Of a stretch of DNA of 64,000 nt, positions 26,175 to 62,149 are shown piece after piece. Both the position numbers and the translations under genes were made by a program. Numbering within the stretch: position 1 is the stretch's first letter; each line of letters opens with the position of its first letter. The DNA lies in contig NZ_CP135529.1 in the NCBI RefSeq assembly GCF_032401055.1, positions 310,001-374,000 on the forward strand, given 5' to 3'. Source of the DNA: Tardiphaga sp. 709. Lineage in GTDB: Bacteria > Pseudomonadota > Alphaproteobacteria > Rhizobiales > Xanthobacteraceae. The notes beneath the pieces are model-generated. The model saw only the letters and a program-made list of their open reading frames with translations. It did not search any database and had not been told where the DNA came from.

Positions 26175-26413
26175 CCATCCGCAGCCAATTCATCGCCGAA
26201 CTGCACGCCGACCGCCGATTCCATGGGCCCCGAAGCCCCGTCGGCTCCAGGTGCAGCCAGCTTGAGCAGATCACCTCGAATATCGACAAGCCGCACTTCG
26301 CCCACGTCCGGCCAAAGCTGATCGCTCAGGCAGAGGCCTATGCCCTAGAAATCCACGCCATCAAGCACGGAGCGCCGGCAACGACGCAGATCCGGCCGCG
26401 CGATCATCAGTAA
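26171..26413 (+). CDS. Phage small hypothetical protein (80 aa)
   Basis: The start overlaps the previous stop by ATGA, so it is translationally coupled. The protein (MTIRSQFIAELHADRRFHG...) is basic, with a helical middle (PKLIAQAEAYALEIHAI). I recognise no domain. Confidence 0.6.
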   Translation: MTIRSQFIAELHADRRFHGPRSPVGSRCSQLEQITSNIDKPHFAHVRPKLIAQAEAYALEIHAIKHGAPATTQIRPRDHQ

Positions 26414-26426
26414 GGATGAATAGGCC

Positions 26427-26630
26427 ATGAAGCTCAAACGATATTGCGTGACCGTCCTCGACAACTGGACCCCAACCAAGGAGTTCTGGACGCTGGATGG
26501 CGCTAGGGAATTTTACCGCGATCATCGGGCGAGCGCGAACGTCTTCAAATGGGAGGACGGTTATTGGCACTGGATGTATGGCGCCCGCGATCGCGACCCC
26601 CGGCTGATCAAATCACCCATTGGGCACTGA
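26427..26630 (+). CDS. Phage small hypothetical protein (67 aa)
   Basis: MKLKRYCVTVLDNWTPTKEFWTL-type protein, rich in Trp and Tyr, probably a compact alpha/beta fold. It lies 13 bp after the previous gene in the same direction. No function is assigned. Confidence 0.6.
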   Translation: MKLKRYCVTVLDNWTPTKEFWTLDGAREFYRDHRASANVFKWEDGYWHWMYGARDRDPRLIKSPIGH

Positions 26631-26928: not shown

Positions 26929-27180
26929 ATGCCAATGCCTGACAATTGCCTCTGCATGGAATGCCGCCTCAGAACCGCGCTTCACGGCGAGCGGTCGGAC
27001 GCGCCCTTTGAACTCGACATGAACGAGGCTTACACCGCGATGGGGAACGTCATGGGCGAGCTTCTGGCGCACGCTGACACTAAGACTGCCAAGCGCTTCG
27101 CGTCGTACCTGCTCGAAAAGCGCAAGGAATGGAAATCCCATCCCCGCGTCGTCACCCAGCACACAACCGGCAATGCCTGA
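26929..27180 (+). CDS. Phage small hypothetical protein with an N-terminal CxxC pair
   Basis: I used the ATG at 26929; a GTG at 26923 is in frame and would overlap the previous stop. The 83-residue protein begins MPMPDNCLCMECRLR, three cysteines in a CxCxxC arrangement that could bind metal. A helical C-terminus (TAKRFASYLLEKRKEW) follows. The function is unknown. Confidence 0.55.
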   Translation: MPMPDNCLCMECRLRTALHGERSDAPFELDMNEAYTAMGNVMGELLAHADTKTAKRFASYLLEKRKEWKSHPRVVTQHTTGNA

Positions 27181-27191
27181 GAGGATTGGTT

Positions 27192-27377
27192 ATGAGCTAC
27201 CACGATGTCCCGGAAGGCGGAGCGGCGCGCGAGATCGGTCGCAAGATCTACATGGACGCCCTGGCTGGCCGCCGTGGCTTCCGTGATGACCAGCTAGGGA
27301 TCGACGATCCTGAGCTTTGGGCTGAAATATTCGAGGCGATGGGCAGGATCGCGCTCACCGAACTGACCCCGGCCTAG
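27192..27377 (+). CDS. Phage small hypothetical protein (61 aa)
   Basis: The start at 27192 (MSYHDVPEGGAAREIGRKIYM) follows GAGGATTGGTT, a weak-to-fair ribosome site, and avoids overlap with the previous gene. The protein is acidic and helical (DPELWAEIFEAMGRIAL). The function is unknown. Confidence 0.55.
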   Translation: MSYHDVPEGGAAREIGRKIYMDALAGRRGFRDDQLGIDDPELWAEIFEAMGRIALTELTPA

Positions 27378-57440: not shown

Positions 57441-58114
57441 TATTCTGCTGCCTGCTTGTATGAGCCGACACGGCTCAGGGTTAATTCAAGGTGCTTGCGA
57501 GCCGCCACGCGGAGCAGTGGGATCATGCTCTTGTATTTCTCACGGAAGGCTTCGGCGTCGCTTGGCTGCGTCACGGTCTCAGTGACGATGCGCAGCAGAA
57601 GACGGTAGGTCGCGACGTTTTCAGGACCGCCCCAGCCGATGCGCTTAGCCGCCTCATCGTGGACTTCATCCAGCTTCTTGCGCTCTGCATCGGGGATCTT
57701 GAACGAGCGCCCAGCGGCCTCTAGAGCCACCCATGGAGACTTCATTTCATAGAGGTAGCGCCCGACACCCCAGCGCACAGCGGCACGCTTGAGGGCATCG
57801 CTAAGCATTCCCTTCTCACCTTCAACGTCCGTTGCGCCTGCCCCGTCTGCCTTCCATACCCACTCCCCACCAGGGAGCCGGACACCGAGATTGCAGACGA
57901 TCGAACCGACGACGCCGGCTGTATAATTGCACTGCCAATTTTCCGGCCCGCAGACGCTATCGAGGCGGTCCATCACGGCGCGGGCGTCGATATATGCCAG
58001 CGCCATGCCCTTGCTCTTGTCCTGCGTCGTGCTGCCGACGCGCCAATCAATCTCTTCGGCCGCGAATGGCGAACAGAGCGCGTCGAATAGCTCTTGTGCT
58101 GTTTCGAAGCTCAC
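57440..58114 (-). CDS. Rad52/22-like single-strand annealing protein
   Basis: The 224-residue protein matches the Rad52_Rad22-type phage annealases. The key block is [21 protein letters not shown]-like (residues about 41-61). [20 protein letters not shown] and [20 protein letters not shown] follow. It is expected to anneal complementary strands coated by the SSB encoded next to it. The C-terminal half is helical. Confidence 0.85.
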
Positions 58115-60301: not shown

Positions 60302-60393
60302 GCTCTGAACTCCCGATATGAGATGATCGCAATCAGGCCGGCGACGAACGCGCAGGCGTAGCCAATGTGAATGAGGATTTCTGGGAGGGTCAC
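60298..60393 (-). CDS. Single-helix membrane peptide (31 aa)
   Basis: A GTG start overlaps the YdaS/Cro-like stop (GTGA) and its stop overlaps the next ATG. MTLPEILIHIGYACAFVAGL then IAIISYREFRA is a single transmembrane helix. Its locked position in the chain downstream of the Cro-like gene supports translation. Function unknown. Confidence 0.55.
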   Translation of the reverse strand: MTLPEILIHIGYACAFVAGLIAIISYREFRA

Positions 60394-60638
60394 GCTGCAC
60401 CCTGCGCCGTTGGGGCAGCGGGGACGTCTTCAGGATTTGTCCAGAGGTCAGGCCGCAGCTCGGAAGCCGGCACTTCACCCTTAGTAAAATGATGGATTGC
60501 TAGAGCGAGCTTCGGGCCTGCACGCCCTGAATGCTTCGCTTTATTGATCAAGGGCTGCGAAAGCCCGATGGCACTCGCTAGCTTGGCTTCAGAACCGCCA
60601 GCGAGGTCAATTGCGCGATCGATTGGTGACTTTTCCAT
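60390..60638 (-). CDS. YdaS/Cro-like repressor, first gene of the leftward early operon
   Basis: The 82-residue protein has a lambda-type HTH (DRAIDLAGGSEAKLASAIGL then SQPLINKAKHSGRAG), the YdaS/Cro pattern used opposite CI-type repressors. The ATG is at the predicted transcript start (-10 AAAATA read as TATTTT on the minus strand at 60645-60650, -35 TTGACT at 60667-60672, spacer 16). No Shine-Dalgarno precedes it, so the message is probably leaderless. An operator half-site ATAAC touches the start codon (60637-60641). Confidence 0.85.
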   Translation of the reverse strand: MEKSPIDRAIDLAGGSEAKLASAIGLSQPLINKAKHSGRAGPKLALAIHHFTKGEVPASELRPDLWTNPEDVPAAPTAQGAA

Positions 60639-60723
60639 AACTTGAAAATAACAAAAGTTATGAGGAAGTCAAGAACCAATGTTATCAGGACAGTCTATAA
60701 CCGATGTTATAATCTCCCGACTC
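60639..60723. promoter_or_regulatory. OR-like immunity region: three operators ATAAC-N4-GTTAT
   Basis: Between the divergent repressor genes lie three copies: O1 60648-60661 (perfect), O2 60672-60685 (AGAAC-N4-GTTAT, one mismatch) and O3 60697-60710 (perfect). Centres are 24 and 25 bp apart. O1 overlaps the -10 and spacer of the leftward promoter (TATTTT / TTGACT). O3 overlaps a TATAAT (60708-60713) that starts 16 bp before the repressor ATG. This mirrors lambda OR1-OR2-OR3 logic with a different sequence. Confidence 0.85.
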
Positions 60724-61437
60724 ATGGAATCGGGAAAACTCATTAGATCTGAACGTGTTGGCAAAGGGTGGTCGCAGGCCGAGCTGGGCAAGCGCGTGGG
60801 CGTATCTCAGGTGGCTATCAAGAAAATTGAAGCCGGCCGGACGATAAAATCGAAGCATCTCCCAAAGATTGCCGAATTGCTCTCTATACCTTTGTCTAAG
60901 CTAGACCCTTCGCTGTCGCAGCATGGTTTAGGAACCGCTAACCACTCCGACAACGATACCCTGCGGAAAACTAGAATAGCTCCACCCCCCAGTGAAACTT
61001 TCGGTCACAATGCCCGTATCGGAGCAGCCGTCTCCGGCTTTGCGAGAGTTCCGATAAGGGGCCAAACAATGGGCGGTAAGGACGGGGCACTAATATTCAA
61101 CGCGGACGAATATTTCGGGGAAGTAGAAGCCCCATCTAAGCTGGCCGGTGTCCCTGATGCCTATGCGGCATATGTCGTCGGCGATTCTATGCTGGAGCGA
61201 TATCAGCATGGGGAAGTCGTCTATGTTCACCCCTATGCGCCTGTTAAAAAGAACGATTACGTGGTCATCCAGATCCAGGTGGGAGACCATGGCGCTGTAC
61301 ATGGATGGGTGAAGCGGTTCGTGTCCAGAGATGACACCACACTGAAGGTGCTCCAACTCAATCCTCGTAAGACGTTGAGTTTCCCGAACGACCGGGTAGT
61401 TCACGTTCACAAGATTGTGGGAGCTGGCGAGCCATGA
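60724..61437 (+). CDS. CI-like repressor with S24 peptidase-type C-terminal domain
   Basis: I chose the ATG at 60724 because it leaves operators O2 and O3 outside the coding region; an ATG at 60679 is in frame but would cover them. The 237-residue protein has a HTH (GWSQAELGKRVGVSQVAIKK) and a LexA/CI-type domain with Ser155 (VVGDSMLERYQHGEVV) and Lys197 (GWVKRF), the catalytic pair. The usual Ala-Gly cleavage site in the hinge is not evident (VPIRGQTMGGKDG). No Shine-Dalgarno precedes the start, suggesting a leaderless message as for lambda cI. It keeps lysogeny. Confidence 0.88.
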   Translation: MESGKLIRSERVGKGWSQAELGKRVGVSQVAIKKIEAGRTIKSKHLPKIAELLSIPLSKLDPSLSQHGLGTANHSDNDTLRKTRIAPPPSETFGHNARIGAAVSGFARVPIRGQTMGGKDGALIFNADEYFGEVEAPSKLAGVPDAYAAYVVGDSMLERYQHGEVVYVHPYAPVKKNDYVVIQIQVGDHGAVHGWVKRFVSRDDTTLKVLQLNPRKTLSFPNDRVVHVHKIVGAGEP

Positions 61438-61526
61438 TGACTCGCCGGGGACTATCCCTCTTGAACTCGACCTTCAGTTGCGCTCTGGTGTCCCACCCCA
61501 TTTAAGGGGAATCTTGGGAGAAACAA

Positions 61527-61667
61527 ATGAAGCACCTCTTCTTGGCTCTGGCCGCGCTGTCGTTCCTCGCGACCTTCATCCCGGCAGCCGAAGCCGCGTG
61601 TCCTCCGGGCACGACCTACAACTGCACTTCGACCTATAACGGTAAGCAGAGCTGCGGCTGCCGCTGA
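61527..61667 (+). CDS. Secreted four-cysteine micro-peptide (46 aa)
   Basis: MKHLFLALAALSFLATFIPA is a clear signal peptide (cleavage near AEA). The mature part of about 22 residues reads CPPGTTYNC...GKQSCGCR, with four cysteines in C-x7-C and C-x-C spacing. GGGAG precedes the ATG. Directly downstream of the repressor, it is likely expressed in the lysogen. Family unknown to me; resembles small periplasmic Cys peptides in Bradyrhizobium. Confidence 0.65.
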   Translation: MKHLFLALAALSFLATFIPAAEAACPPGTTYNCTSTYNGKQSCGCR

Positions 61668-61725
61668 GCCAGCCCAGGGCGCCTGGTTATGCTGGGCGCC
61701 CGCCAGCGACCGTTGGGGATGTGAG

Positions 61726-62025
61726 ATGGACGATAATTACGCAACTAACCTGATCCGGTCCGTTTCTGCGCAGCTTTACATGCAGAACGTGATGCAGCTT
61801 TCCCAGGAGATGCTGGGGAAGTCTTATTCTTCGCTTTCCCAGCCCGAGCGGTCTTTGGTCGATCGGGCTGCTTACGACTTGCTGGCTCACTTTTACTCGG
61901 TTCTGACGCCTGAGTTTTTTGTGGGACAACAGACTGCGGCGTCGGTTGGGTTTGGCACGACCCATCCCGATAGACCTGCCCAGCCGCAGCCAAGCCAGCC
62001 GGATGCGCCCAAGGCGCCTGGTTAG
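61726..62025 (+). CDS. Phage small hypothetical protein (99 aa)
   Basis: The helical protein MDDNYATNLIRSVSAQLYMQ... contains ERSLVDRAAYDLLAHFYSVL, then an Ala/Gly/Thr and Pro/Gln-rich C-terminal tail (PDRPAQPQPSQPDAPKAPG). No domain is recognised. It lies between the secreted peptide and the second operator cluster. Confidence 0.6.
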   Translation: MDDNYATNLIRSVSAQLYMQNVMQLSQEMLGKSYSSLSQPERSLVDRAAYDLLAHFYSVLTPEFFVGQQTAASVGFGTTHPDRPAQPQPSQPDAPKAPG

Positions 62026-62060
62026 CCTTCCAATCACTTAAAGCCATCTAACCACCCTCC

Positions 62061-62087
62061 CCGGCGCCATGCCGGCTGGCGGGTTTT
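62061..62087 (+). terminator. Weak hairpin candidate terminator before the second operator region
   Basis: CCGGC-GCCAT-GCCGG (62061-62075) is followed after eight bases by TTTT and AT-rich sequence. It could end transcription from the repressor side before the next promoter. The spacing to the T run is poor. Confidence 0.35.
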
Positions 62088-62107
62088 AGCATTTATTTTG
62101 CCCGATG

Positions 62108-62149
62108 ATAACTTTTCTTATTGACGGTTATCATAACCTAGGTTATCAC
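62108..62149 (+). promoter_or_regulatory. OL-like promoter with two repressor operators
   Basis: O4 62108-62121 (ATAAC-TTTT-CTTAT, one mismatch) and O5 62133-62146 (ATAAC-CTAG-GTTAT, perfect) have centres 25 bp apart. TTGACG at 62121-62126 and TATCAC at 62144-62149 have a 17-bp spacer, giving a promoter facing the rightward operon. O5 lies between and over the -10 region, so repressor binding would block it. Confidence 0.8.

What the first reader, a model, noticed from the sequence alone, without database searches (positions are those of the whole stretch)
60637..62149. Five-site operator system with lambda-like OR/OL geometry on a new core
ATAAC-N4-GTTAT occurs three times between the divergent YdaS/Cro-like and CI-like genes (centres 24 and 25 bp apart) and twice 1.4 kb away over a TTGACG-17-TATCAC promoter for the rightward operon (centres 25 bp apart). 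An extra ATAAC half-site touches the Cro-like start codon. The sites cover both early promoters and the repressor promoter. Two distant operator clusters with matched spacing suggest cooperative binding and DNA looping as in lambda.
Basis: partly seen in the sequence, partly recalled or inferred. Interest (0 to 1): 0.85.

Follow-up and report, generated by a model that had tools for sequence, protein, structure and literature searches.

The report
Ordinary lambda-type prophage switch operators
A prophage carries five repressor-binding sites laid out as in phage lambda; the layout is real, but the DNA motif is not new, since many other phages share it when their repressors have a matching DNA-reading helix.

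Summary
The three exact copies are the only ones in the 6.36-Mb genome. They lie where lambda has OR (three sites between cro and cI) and OL (two sites beyond cI). "Lambda-like OR/OL" is supported by comparison; "new core" is not. The paired motif occurs in at least 120 stretches of viral contigs (capped scan). Of the 80 kept, 66 have lambda-like spacing, against 7 of 43 for a reversed-pattern control. Of 61 with a CI domain found, 60 have a recognition helix beginning SQP or SQV. E. coli phage HK639 is a named case. Of 54 loci with at least 3 kb beyond CI, 48 have a second site pair there; 0 of 80 have one on the cro side. CI relatives with other helices, including the 37%-identical phage 16-3 repressor, lack the motif. 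Binding, cooperativity and looping are untested. It is a new member of a known kind; the cross-phage helix-operator match is the more interesting by-product.

The parts
60390..60638 (-). Cro-like repressor gene (82 aa)
   Evidence: Pfam PF15943 (YdaS) 42.6 bits against a cut-off of 30; phrog_35; PDB sequence hits to Cro proteins 3bd1 (E 2e-4) and 2pij (0.025), to lambda Cro only at E 0.4-0.6; helix SQPLINK
60638..60642 (+). extra half-site ATAAC overlapping the cro start codon
   Evidence: sequence; CATAAC in 6 of 7 aligned sequences, window included
60645..60672 (-). PR promoter for cro: TTGACT-16-TATTTT; predicted start at or within a few bases of the cro ATG (leaderless or nearly so, inference)
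   Evidence: the -10 block is conserved, TTGAC is lost in L035
60648..60661 (.). operator site A (OR1-like), exact
60672..60685 (.). operator site B (OR2-like), AGAAC variant
   Evidence: the AGAAC half is identical in 7 of 7 aligned sequences, window included
60697..60710 (.). operator site C (OR3-like), exact, overlapping the -10 of the repressor promoter
60708..60713 (+). PRM -10 TATAAT without a good -35; the centre of site B lies about 42-46 bp upstream of the likely start (60720-60724, inference)
   Evidence: sequence; no + strand promoter listed here
60724..61437 (+). CI-like repressor gene (237 aa), HTH_3 plus Peptidase_S24, helix SQVAIKK
   Evidence: ATG at 60724 in 7 of 7 aligned sequences, window included
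62108..62121 (.). operator site D (OL), ATAACTTTTCTTAT variant
   Evidence: the identical 14-mer is in L025, L035, L036 and, read in the direction of CI, L017
62121..62149 (+). PL promoter TTGACG-17-TATCAC
   Evidence: sequence; TTATTGAC identical in 6 of 6 aligned OL regions, window included; not listed by the promoter scan
62133..62146 (.). operator site E (OL), exact

Best explanation
This is the immunity region of an integrated lambda-type phage. CI (60724-61437) binds as dimers to ATAAC-N4-GTTAT sites A, B and C (OR) and D and E (OL). Sites A and B block PR (leftward: cro and the lytic genes); D and E block PL (rightward operon, reaching an integrase about 5 kb on). A dimer on B, about 42-46 bp upstream of the likely PRM start, probably activates the cI promoter, which has a perfect -10 but no good -35; a dimer on C, over that -10, shuts it at high CI level. 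Cro, whose helix has the same SQP...K signature, competes for the same sites. Shown here: sites, geometry, promoters by sequence, gene identity, conservation in relatives, and the match of helix to operator. Inferred: protein binding, order of filling, activation from B, Cro competition, leaderless mRNAs. Not shown: cooperativity or OR-OL looping.
For: Exact motif unique to this 1.5 kb in the genome. Gene content: S24-type CI and YdaS/Cro; tyrosine integrase at L229:3408-4625, which is 67408-68625 in window numbering. Helix and operator go together: of 20 loci fetched through the CI protein (window excluded) whose helix is SQ[PV]xxxK, 18 have at least two sites just upstream of CI; of 6 with other helices, 0; of 164 loci of other repressor types (66 distinct N-termini), 0. 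A site pair beyond CI in 48 of 54 loci with at least 3 kb there, and none of 80 with one on the cro side, as far as sequence was held. The deviating halves of B and D are conserved. A de novo palindrome search finds the same motif. Of 80 loci with an OR cluster, 55 have a cro-side frame with [ST]Q[PV]xxxK and 64 one with [ST]Q[PV], against 1 of 11 (K form) where the cluster is lacking.
Against: No binding data. PL is not listed by the promoter scan. L020 has a matching helix and no site with fewer than two mismatches upstream of CI; L038 has one site with one mismatch and one with two. L052, L055 and L180 have SQP, but R or D at the seventh helix position, and no site cluster, so SQP/SQV alone is not sufficient. 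L035-L050 (16 of the 20) were found by scans whose patterns included the helix peptide QVAIKKIE, and several loci are near-duplicates, so 18 of 20 is not an independent sample. No pair beyond CI was found in 6 of the 54 loci. In 25 of 80 loci no cro-side frame with the full signature was found.
Confidence: 0.93

Rival explanations
1. As above, and in addition CI dimers at OR and OL meet through a 1.4-kb DNA loop that tunes PRM, as in lambda.
For: Two clusters with 24-25 bp spacing, centres 1448 bp apart. In 62 of 80 loci with an OR cluster an OL-type pair was found. Long-distance cooperativity is stated for 434, lambda and P22 in PMC5977221 (passages). PaaR2 of CP-933P, which also pairs with a YdaS-type Cro, is said to octamerise (PMC8630535, section 9 read).
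Against: The OR-OL distance ranges from 766 to 4457 bp in the 62, so no fixed loop length is kept. OL is needed to repress PL without any loop. There are two OL sites, not three, and 933W without OL3 is reported not to bind OR1-OR2 cooperatively.
Confidence: 0.45
2. CI uses only short-range pairing (or none); the two clusters act independently, each silencing its own promoter.
For: Each cluster overlaps its promoter; the 16-3 relative has two-site OR and OL annotated at PR and PL; the 933W precedent.
Against: Conserved 24-25 bp spacing places dimers on nearly the same face of the DNA, as in lambda (recalled); in the aligned relatives the middle OR site keeps a deviating half, as expected if it is filled by cooperation, possibly with OL.
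Confidence: 0.5
3. The YdaS-like gene and its partner are a toxin-antitoxin pair, and the palindromes are autoregulatory sites of that pair.
For: Pfam names PF15943 'Bacterial toxin YdaS'.
Against: The partner is an S24-type repressor, not YdaT; sites recur at a second, distant promoter; the gene order is that of an immunity region. For CP-933P it was argued that YdaS and YdaT are Cro and CII analogues and no TA pair (PMC8630535, abstract and passages).
Confidence: 0.04
4. The palindromes are a chance cluster of AT-rich inverted repeats without function.
For: The motif is AT-rich, and promoters are AT-rich.
Against: 0 of 100 shuffles; exact motif unique in the genome; same positions in diverged relatives.
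Confidence: 0.01

Closest known systems
Escherichia phage HK639 immunity region
   Same: Three exact ATAAC-N4-GTTAT sites between cI and cro, one of them overlapping the annotated putative pR; three sites (one exact, two with one mismatch) at and beside the annotated putative pL, 2.6 kb away; CI helix SQPAIQK, Cro helix SQPAVHK.
   Different: BLAST's best segment between the two CIs covers only 39 residues of the DNA-binding domain; three OL sites, not two; Ala-Gly at the presumed cleavage column where ours has Gly-Gly.
Rhizobium phage 16-3 C repressor and its OR/OL
   Same: Among the best phage-record matches to our CI (37% over 94%, lowest E-value); OR between divergent genes, OL just past c at PL (annotation); Gly-Gly at the same column.
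   Different: Two sites per operator, read: ACAA-N6-TTGT and TCAA-N6-TTGT (OR), ACAA-N4-TTGT twice (OL); helix SQQAINN; no ATAAC sites.
Phage lambda OR/OL with CI and Cro
   Same: Gene order, three-site OR, OL over a second early promoter, similar centre spacing (lambda values recalled).
   Different: Different operator and repressor sequence; two OL sites; lambda's looping and RecA cleavage not shown here.
CP-933P PaaR2/YdaS/YdaT region (PMC8630535; abstract, passages and one section seen)
   Same: YdaS-family Cro opposite a CI analogue with operators also at a PL; leaderless repressor gene.
   Different: Four 18-bp inverted repeats with consensus GTTTAGTAA in a footprinted region; PaaR2 said to lack sequence similarity to CI.
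Phage 434 repressor (PDB 1per, 1sq8)
   Same: Best solved-structure matches to the CI DNA-binding domain (E 6e-7 for the 434 derivative, 3e-6 for 434 repressor); a Gln at the matching helix position.
   Different: 434 reads ACAA half-sites (recalled); Gln where ours has Val.

Membership tests
Lambda-type CI/Cro immunity region | Divergent repressor and Cro genes sharing an operator cluster | tested here: met
   (gene identity and site positions; binding not tested)
Lambda-type CI/Cro immunity region | Three-site OR with about 24 bp between centres, over PR and PRM | tested here: met
   PRM -35 not found
Lambda-type CI/Cro immunity region | OL sites of the same sequence over a second early promoter beyond cI | tested here: met
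   promoter by eye and conservation, not listed
Lambda-type CI/Cro immunity region | Repressor with N-terminal HTH and C-terminal S24 domain | tested here: met
   PF01381 44.1 bits, PF00717 34.9 bits, both above cut-off
Lambda-type CI/Cro immunity region | PL-type operon leads to the integrase; PR-type operon to recombination and late genes | tested here: met
   integrase in L229; Erf/Rad52-type protein at 57443-58114; the terminase and portal reading of about 47.8-52.5 kb rests on ORFs seen, no family search
Lambda-type CI/Cro immunity region | CI and Cro bind these operators | not testable with these tools
   only helix-operator correlation
Lambda-type CI/Cro immunity region | Cooperative binding and OR-OL looping | not testable with these tools
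   none beyond spacing
Lambda-type CI/Cro immunity region | RecA-stimulated self-cleavage at Ala-Gly (true of lambda and P22, not of every lambdoid repressor) | tested here: inconclusive
   Ser 155 and Lys 197 present; the aligned cleavage column reads Gly-Gly, against Ala-Gly in HK639, L040, L056, L076 and L081
Phage 16-3 C-repressor specificity group | ACAA-type operators with N4/N6 spacers | tested here: not met
   operators here are ATAAC-N4-GTTAT; 16-3 has none of these
YdaS/Cro family PF15943 | score above the curated cut-off | tested here: met
   42.6 against 30 bits

The most novel reading that the evidence does not exclude
ATAAC-N4-GTTAT is one immunity 'dialect' shared by temperate phages of Alpha-, Beta- and Gammaproteobacteria whose repressors are otherwise nearly unrelated. 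It is kept because CI, and usually Cro, carry the SQ[PV]-type reading helix, so repressors from one bacterial class would bind, and may silence, phages of another.
Probability: 0.35. Interest if true: 0.6.

Novelty: new member of a known kind. Interest (0 to 1): 0.36.

Why it matters
For this window: it indicates that the prophage has a complete lambda-type switch by sequence, and it gives testable operator positions in a bacterium far from E. coli. More widely: the same operator beside matching CI helices in dozens of phage contigs makes a simple reading rule testable. Gln-28 would go with A1, Val/Pro-29 with T2, and the last helix residue with the inner bases (numbering as in 434 repressor, my alignment). 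That repressors of unrelated phages can share specificity is an old idea: the title 'Related repressor specificity of unrelated phages' (Dallmann et al., Nature 1987) was seen only in the reference list of PMC3694467.

Tried and rejected
'New core' was tested by collection scans and rejected. Chance was tested with shuffles, the whole genome, a reversed-pattern scan of viral contigs (43 stretches in all, uncapped; 7 of 43 with 24/25/48/49 spacing against 66 of 80) and 398 genomes of the phylum (3 with the paired motif, one of them the window's own genome; 1 with the control). The chance share among the 80 is not nil: 14 have other spacings, and several of these are AT-rich contigs without a CI hit.

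A strict rule 'SQP/SQV means ATAAC' was rejected: L052, L055 and L180 have SQP but no site cluster. They have R or D at the seventh helix position. AQPTIWR repressors (80 loci, 19 distinct N-termini) go with ATAC-N6-GTAT-like sites: 79 have three or more and 1 has two, one mismatch allowed, against 0 in 80 loci of the AQSSVN type. AQSSVNK repressors go with ATCGC-N4-GCGAT in the two examples printed. This reading of the seventh position is post hoc. A lysine there is not essential: SQVTIQH and SQPAYQA repressors also sit by ATAAC sites. A claim that Cro always shares the signature was dropped: 55 of 80 with the full form.

Rows left out of the helix counts: 19 of 80 pattern loci without a CI hit at E 0.05; 23 of the 30 genome loci L005-L034, in which no similar DNA-binding domain was found (none held a site with at most one mismatch); and L053, L177, L178 and L179 (no such domain found; no site cluster). 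L180 and L181, fetched through HK639's CI, have one and no site and are not in the 20 and 6. HK022 (L177) instead gave TGAAC-N5-GTTCA in the de novo search.

Literature: the motif written out in three spellings gave 0 papers. A search for the letters ataac and gttat with prophage and repressor gave 102 papers, 20 listed, of which I looked into PMC5977221 and, found again through, PMC3121763. Listings of other searches showed no title or abstract start on this operator class. The library holds open-licence papers only, so this does not show that the class is unpublished. P22 c2 was considered from memory as a second recognition parallel and not tested.
Full report
OBSERVATION. The motif scan finds five ATAAC-N4-GTTAT matches with at most one mismatch in the 64-kb window: 60648-60661 (A, exact), 60672-60685 (B, AGAAC), 60697-60710 (C, exact), 62108-62121 (D, CTTAT) and 62133-62146 (E, exact). 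Shuffled sequence gives a mean of 0.34 and 0 of 100 shuffles reach five. In the whole 6,359,564-base genome the exact motif occurs at A, C and E only. With at most one mismatch there are 28 places, fewer than for the reversed control (54), and five of them are here.

ANATOMY. The leftward gene 60390-60638 is a YdaS-family Cro (PF15943, 42.6 bits; phrog_35; PDB Cro chain 3bd1 at E 2e-4, lambda Cro only at 0.4-0.6). The rightward gene 60724-61437 is a repressor with HTH_3 and Peptidase_S24 domains. Its DNA-binding domain matches 434 repressor structures best. PR is TTGACT-16-TATTTT at 60672-60645: site A overlaps its -10 and site B touches its -35. PRM has a perfect -10 (TATAAT, 60708-60713) overlapped by site C, and no good -35. 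The centre of B lies about 42-46 bp upstream of the likely start, about where an activating dimer sits in lambda (recalled). PL, TTGACG-17-TATCAC (62121-62149), is touched by D and overlapped by E. It is not listed by the promoter scan, but TTATTGAC is identical in six of six aligned OL regions, window included. Both cro and cI start codons lie so close to their -10 boxes that leaderless or nearly leaderless mRNAs are likely (inference). Leaderless cI and paaR2 are described in PMC8630535 (passages). The rightward operon leads to a tyrosine integrase at L229:3408-4625, about 5 kb past PL (PF00589).

THE MOTIF IS SHARED BY MANY PHAGES. Many of these show a three-site cluster and a distant pair or triple. 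Of the 80, 66 have two exact sites 24, 25, 48 or 49 bp apart; the reversed control pattern gave 43 stretches in all, 7 of them with such spacing. Of 398 genomes of the phylum, 3 hold the paired motif (one is the window's own) and 1 the control. One named carrier is Escherichia phage HK639, with sites at its annotated putative pR and pL. Clusters of one exact and two or three one-mismatch sites lie upstream of CI in records titled Bosea sp. LC85 (L049) and uncultured Achromobacter (L050). So 'new core' fails.

HELIX AND OPERATOR GO TOGETHER. In 61 of the 80 pattern loci a CI-type DNA-binding domain was found by similarity to ours. The recognition helix begins SQP or SQV in 60 of 61; the exception, L097 (SQE), also has an odd spacing of 33. 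For loci fetched through the CI protein rather than the motif (window excluded), 18 of 20 with SQ[PV]xxxK have at least two sites just upstream of CI. The two misses are L020, and L038, which has one site with one mismatch and a second with two. Of 6 with other helices, 0 have them. A further 164 loci of three other repressor types (66 distinct N-termini) give 0 of 164. Limits: the scans that brought L035-L050 used the helix peptide among their patterns, many loci are near-duplicates, and no correction for kinship was made. The clearest single contrast does not depend on counting. Phage 16-3's repressor is 37% identical to ours over 94% of our protein, yet has helix SQQAINN and ACAA-type operators. 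HK639's CI matches ours by BLAST best over only 39 residues, yet has SQPAIQK and the same operators. On the cro side, 55 of the 80 loci with an OR cluster have a frame with [ST]Q[PV]xxxK at the right distance (SQPLINK here, SQVAVNK, SQPAVHK elsewhere) and 64 have [ST]Q[PV]; of 11 loci without a cluster 1 has the K form.

GEOMETRY IS CONSERVED. Of 80 loci with an OR cluster (window and duplicates included), 54 have at least 3 kb beyond CI, and 48 of these carry a second pair of sites there (at most one mismatch, 18-50 bp apart, within 4 kb). None of the 80 has such a pair on the cro side, where the length of sequence held varies. In all, 62 of 80 have the second pair, at 766 to 4457 bp; the window's value is 1436 bp by the same measure, 1448 bp between cluster centres. 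The deviating halves are conserved too: the AGAAC half of site B in 7 of 7 aligned sequences, and the whole 14-mer of site D in L025, L035, L036 and L017. Conserved weak halves suggest tuned affinities (inference).

MECHANISM. Most likely CI fills A and B, silences PR and raises its own promoter from B; C over the PRM -10 closes the feedback; D and E silence PL; Cro competes at the same sites. Binding, order of filling, activation and competition are inferred from position and family. It is possible: PMC5977221 states long-distance cooperativity for 434, lambda and P22. But OL is needed for PL repression without it, the OR-OL distance varies nearly six-fold, and the same paper reports that 933W lacks OL3 and OR1-OR2 cooperativity, while BAA2326 has such cooperativity (passages). 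I give looping 0.45.

INDUCTION. Ser 155 and Lys 197 of the S24 dyad are present, but the aligned cleavage column reads Gly-Gly rather than the Ala-Gly of HK639-type repressors. Whether this repressor is cleaved is open; prophages whose repressors are not cleaved and are inactivated by antirepressors are known (Gifsy, PMC3121763, passages).

RECOGNITION (speculative). With 434 numbering (my alignment), Q28 with A1 fits 434, and Val or Pro 29 with T2 fits the ATAAC set. Repressors with AQPTIWR go with ATAC-N6-GTAT-like sites and AQSSVNK with ATCGC-N4-GCGAT, so A1 stays while the inner bases change with the rest of the helix. For 933W, the K46A mutant lost all specific binding, and its operators keep A and C at positions 4 and 5 (PMC3317979, passages, first part of section 14). 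That K46 corresponds to our last helix lysine is my own placement, not tested.

NOVELTY. New member of a known kind. My literature searches (listings) showed no paper on this operator class, but the library is partial and most listed papers were not opened. The boldest reading left open is a single operator dialect across three classes of Proteobacteria with real cross-binding; nothing here measures binding.

Noticed in passing
60724-61437 (CI): Ser and Lys of the S24 dyad are present, but the column aligned with the Ala-Gly of HK639-type repressors reads Gly-Gly, as in phage 16-3, L035 and L036; induction may not be by RecA cleavage.
   Followed up: partly
61527-61664 and 61726-62022: Between CI and OL, where lambda has rexAB (recalled), lie a 46-aa ORF with a signal-like start and a Cys-rich end and a 99-aa ORF, neither matching a family above cut-off; the relatives looked at have other small ORFs or none there.
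   Followed up: partly
60638-60642: The ATAAC half-site that overlaps the Cro start codon is present in 6 of 7 aligned sequences, window included; it could be a half-operator one helical turn from site A or a feature of a leaderless start.
   Followed up: partly
L038 about 1108-1145 and 1936-1974: Relative with matching helix whose four sites all carry changed halves (AGAAC, GTTTT, CTTCT) at the usual places: a drifting or altered operator set.
   Followed up: no
L020 (G004 contig 15): Two CI-type genes seem to lie in tandem (hits at 26389-26574 and 27154-27351), and the expected operators are degenerate.
   Followed up: no
L060, L093, L094, L127: Contigs without a CI hit that hold exact ATAAC-N4-GTTAT copies at other spacings (39-52 bp); five exact copies within 190 bp in L060; use unknown.
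   Followed up: no
L229:1550-2068 (65550-66068 in window numbering): C-5 cytosine methyltransferase-like ORF (172 aa, PF00145) in the rightward operon before the integrase.
   Followed up: no
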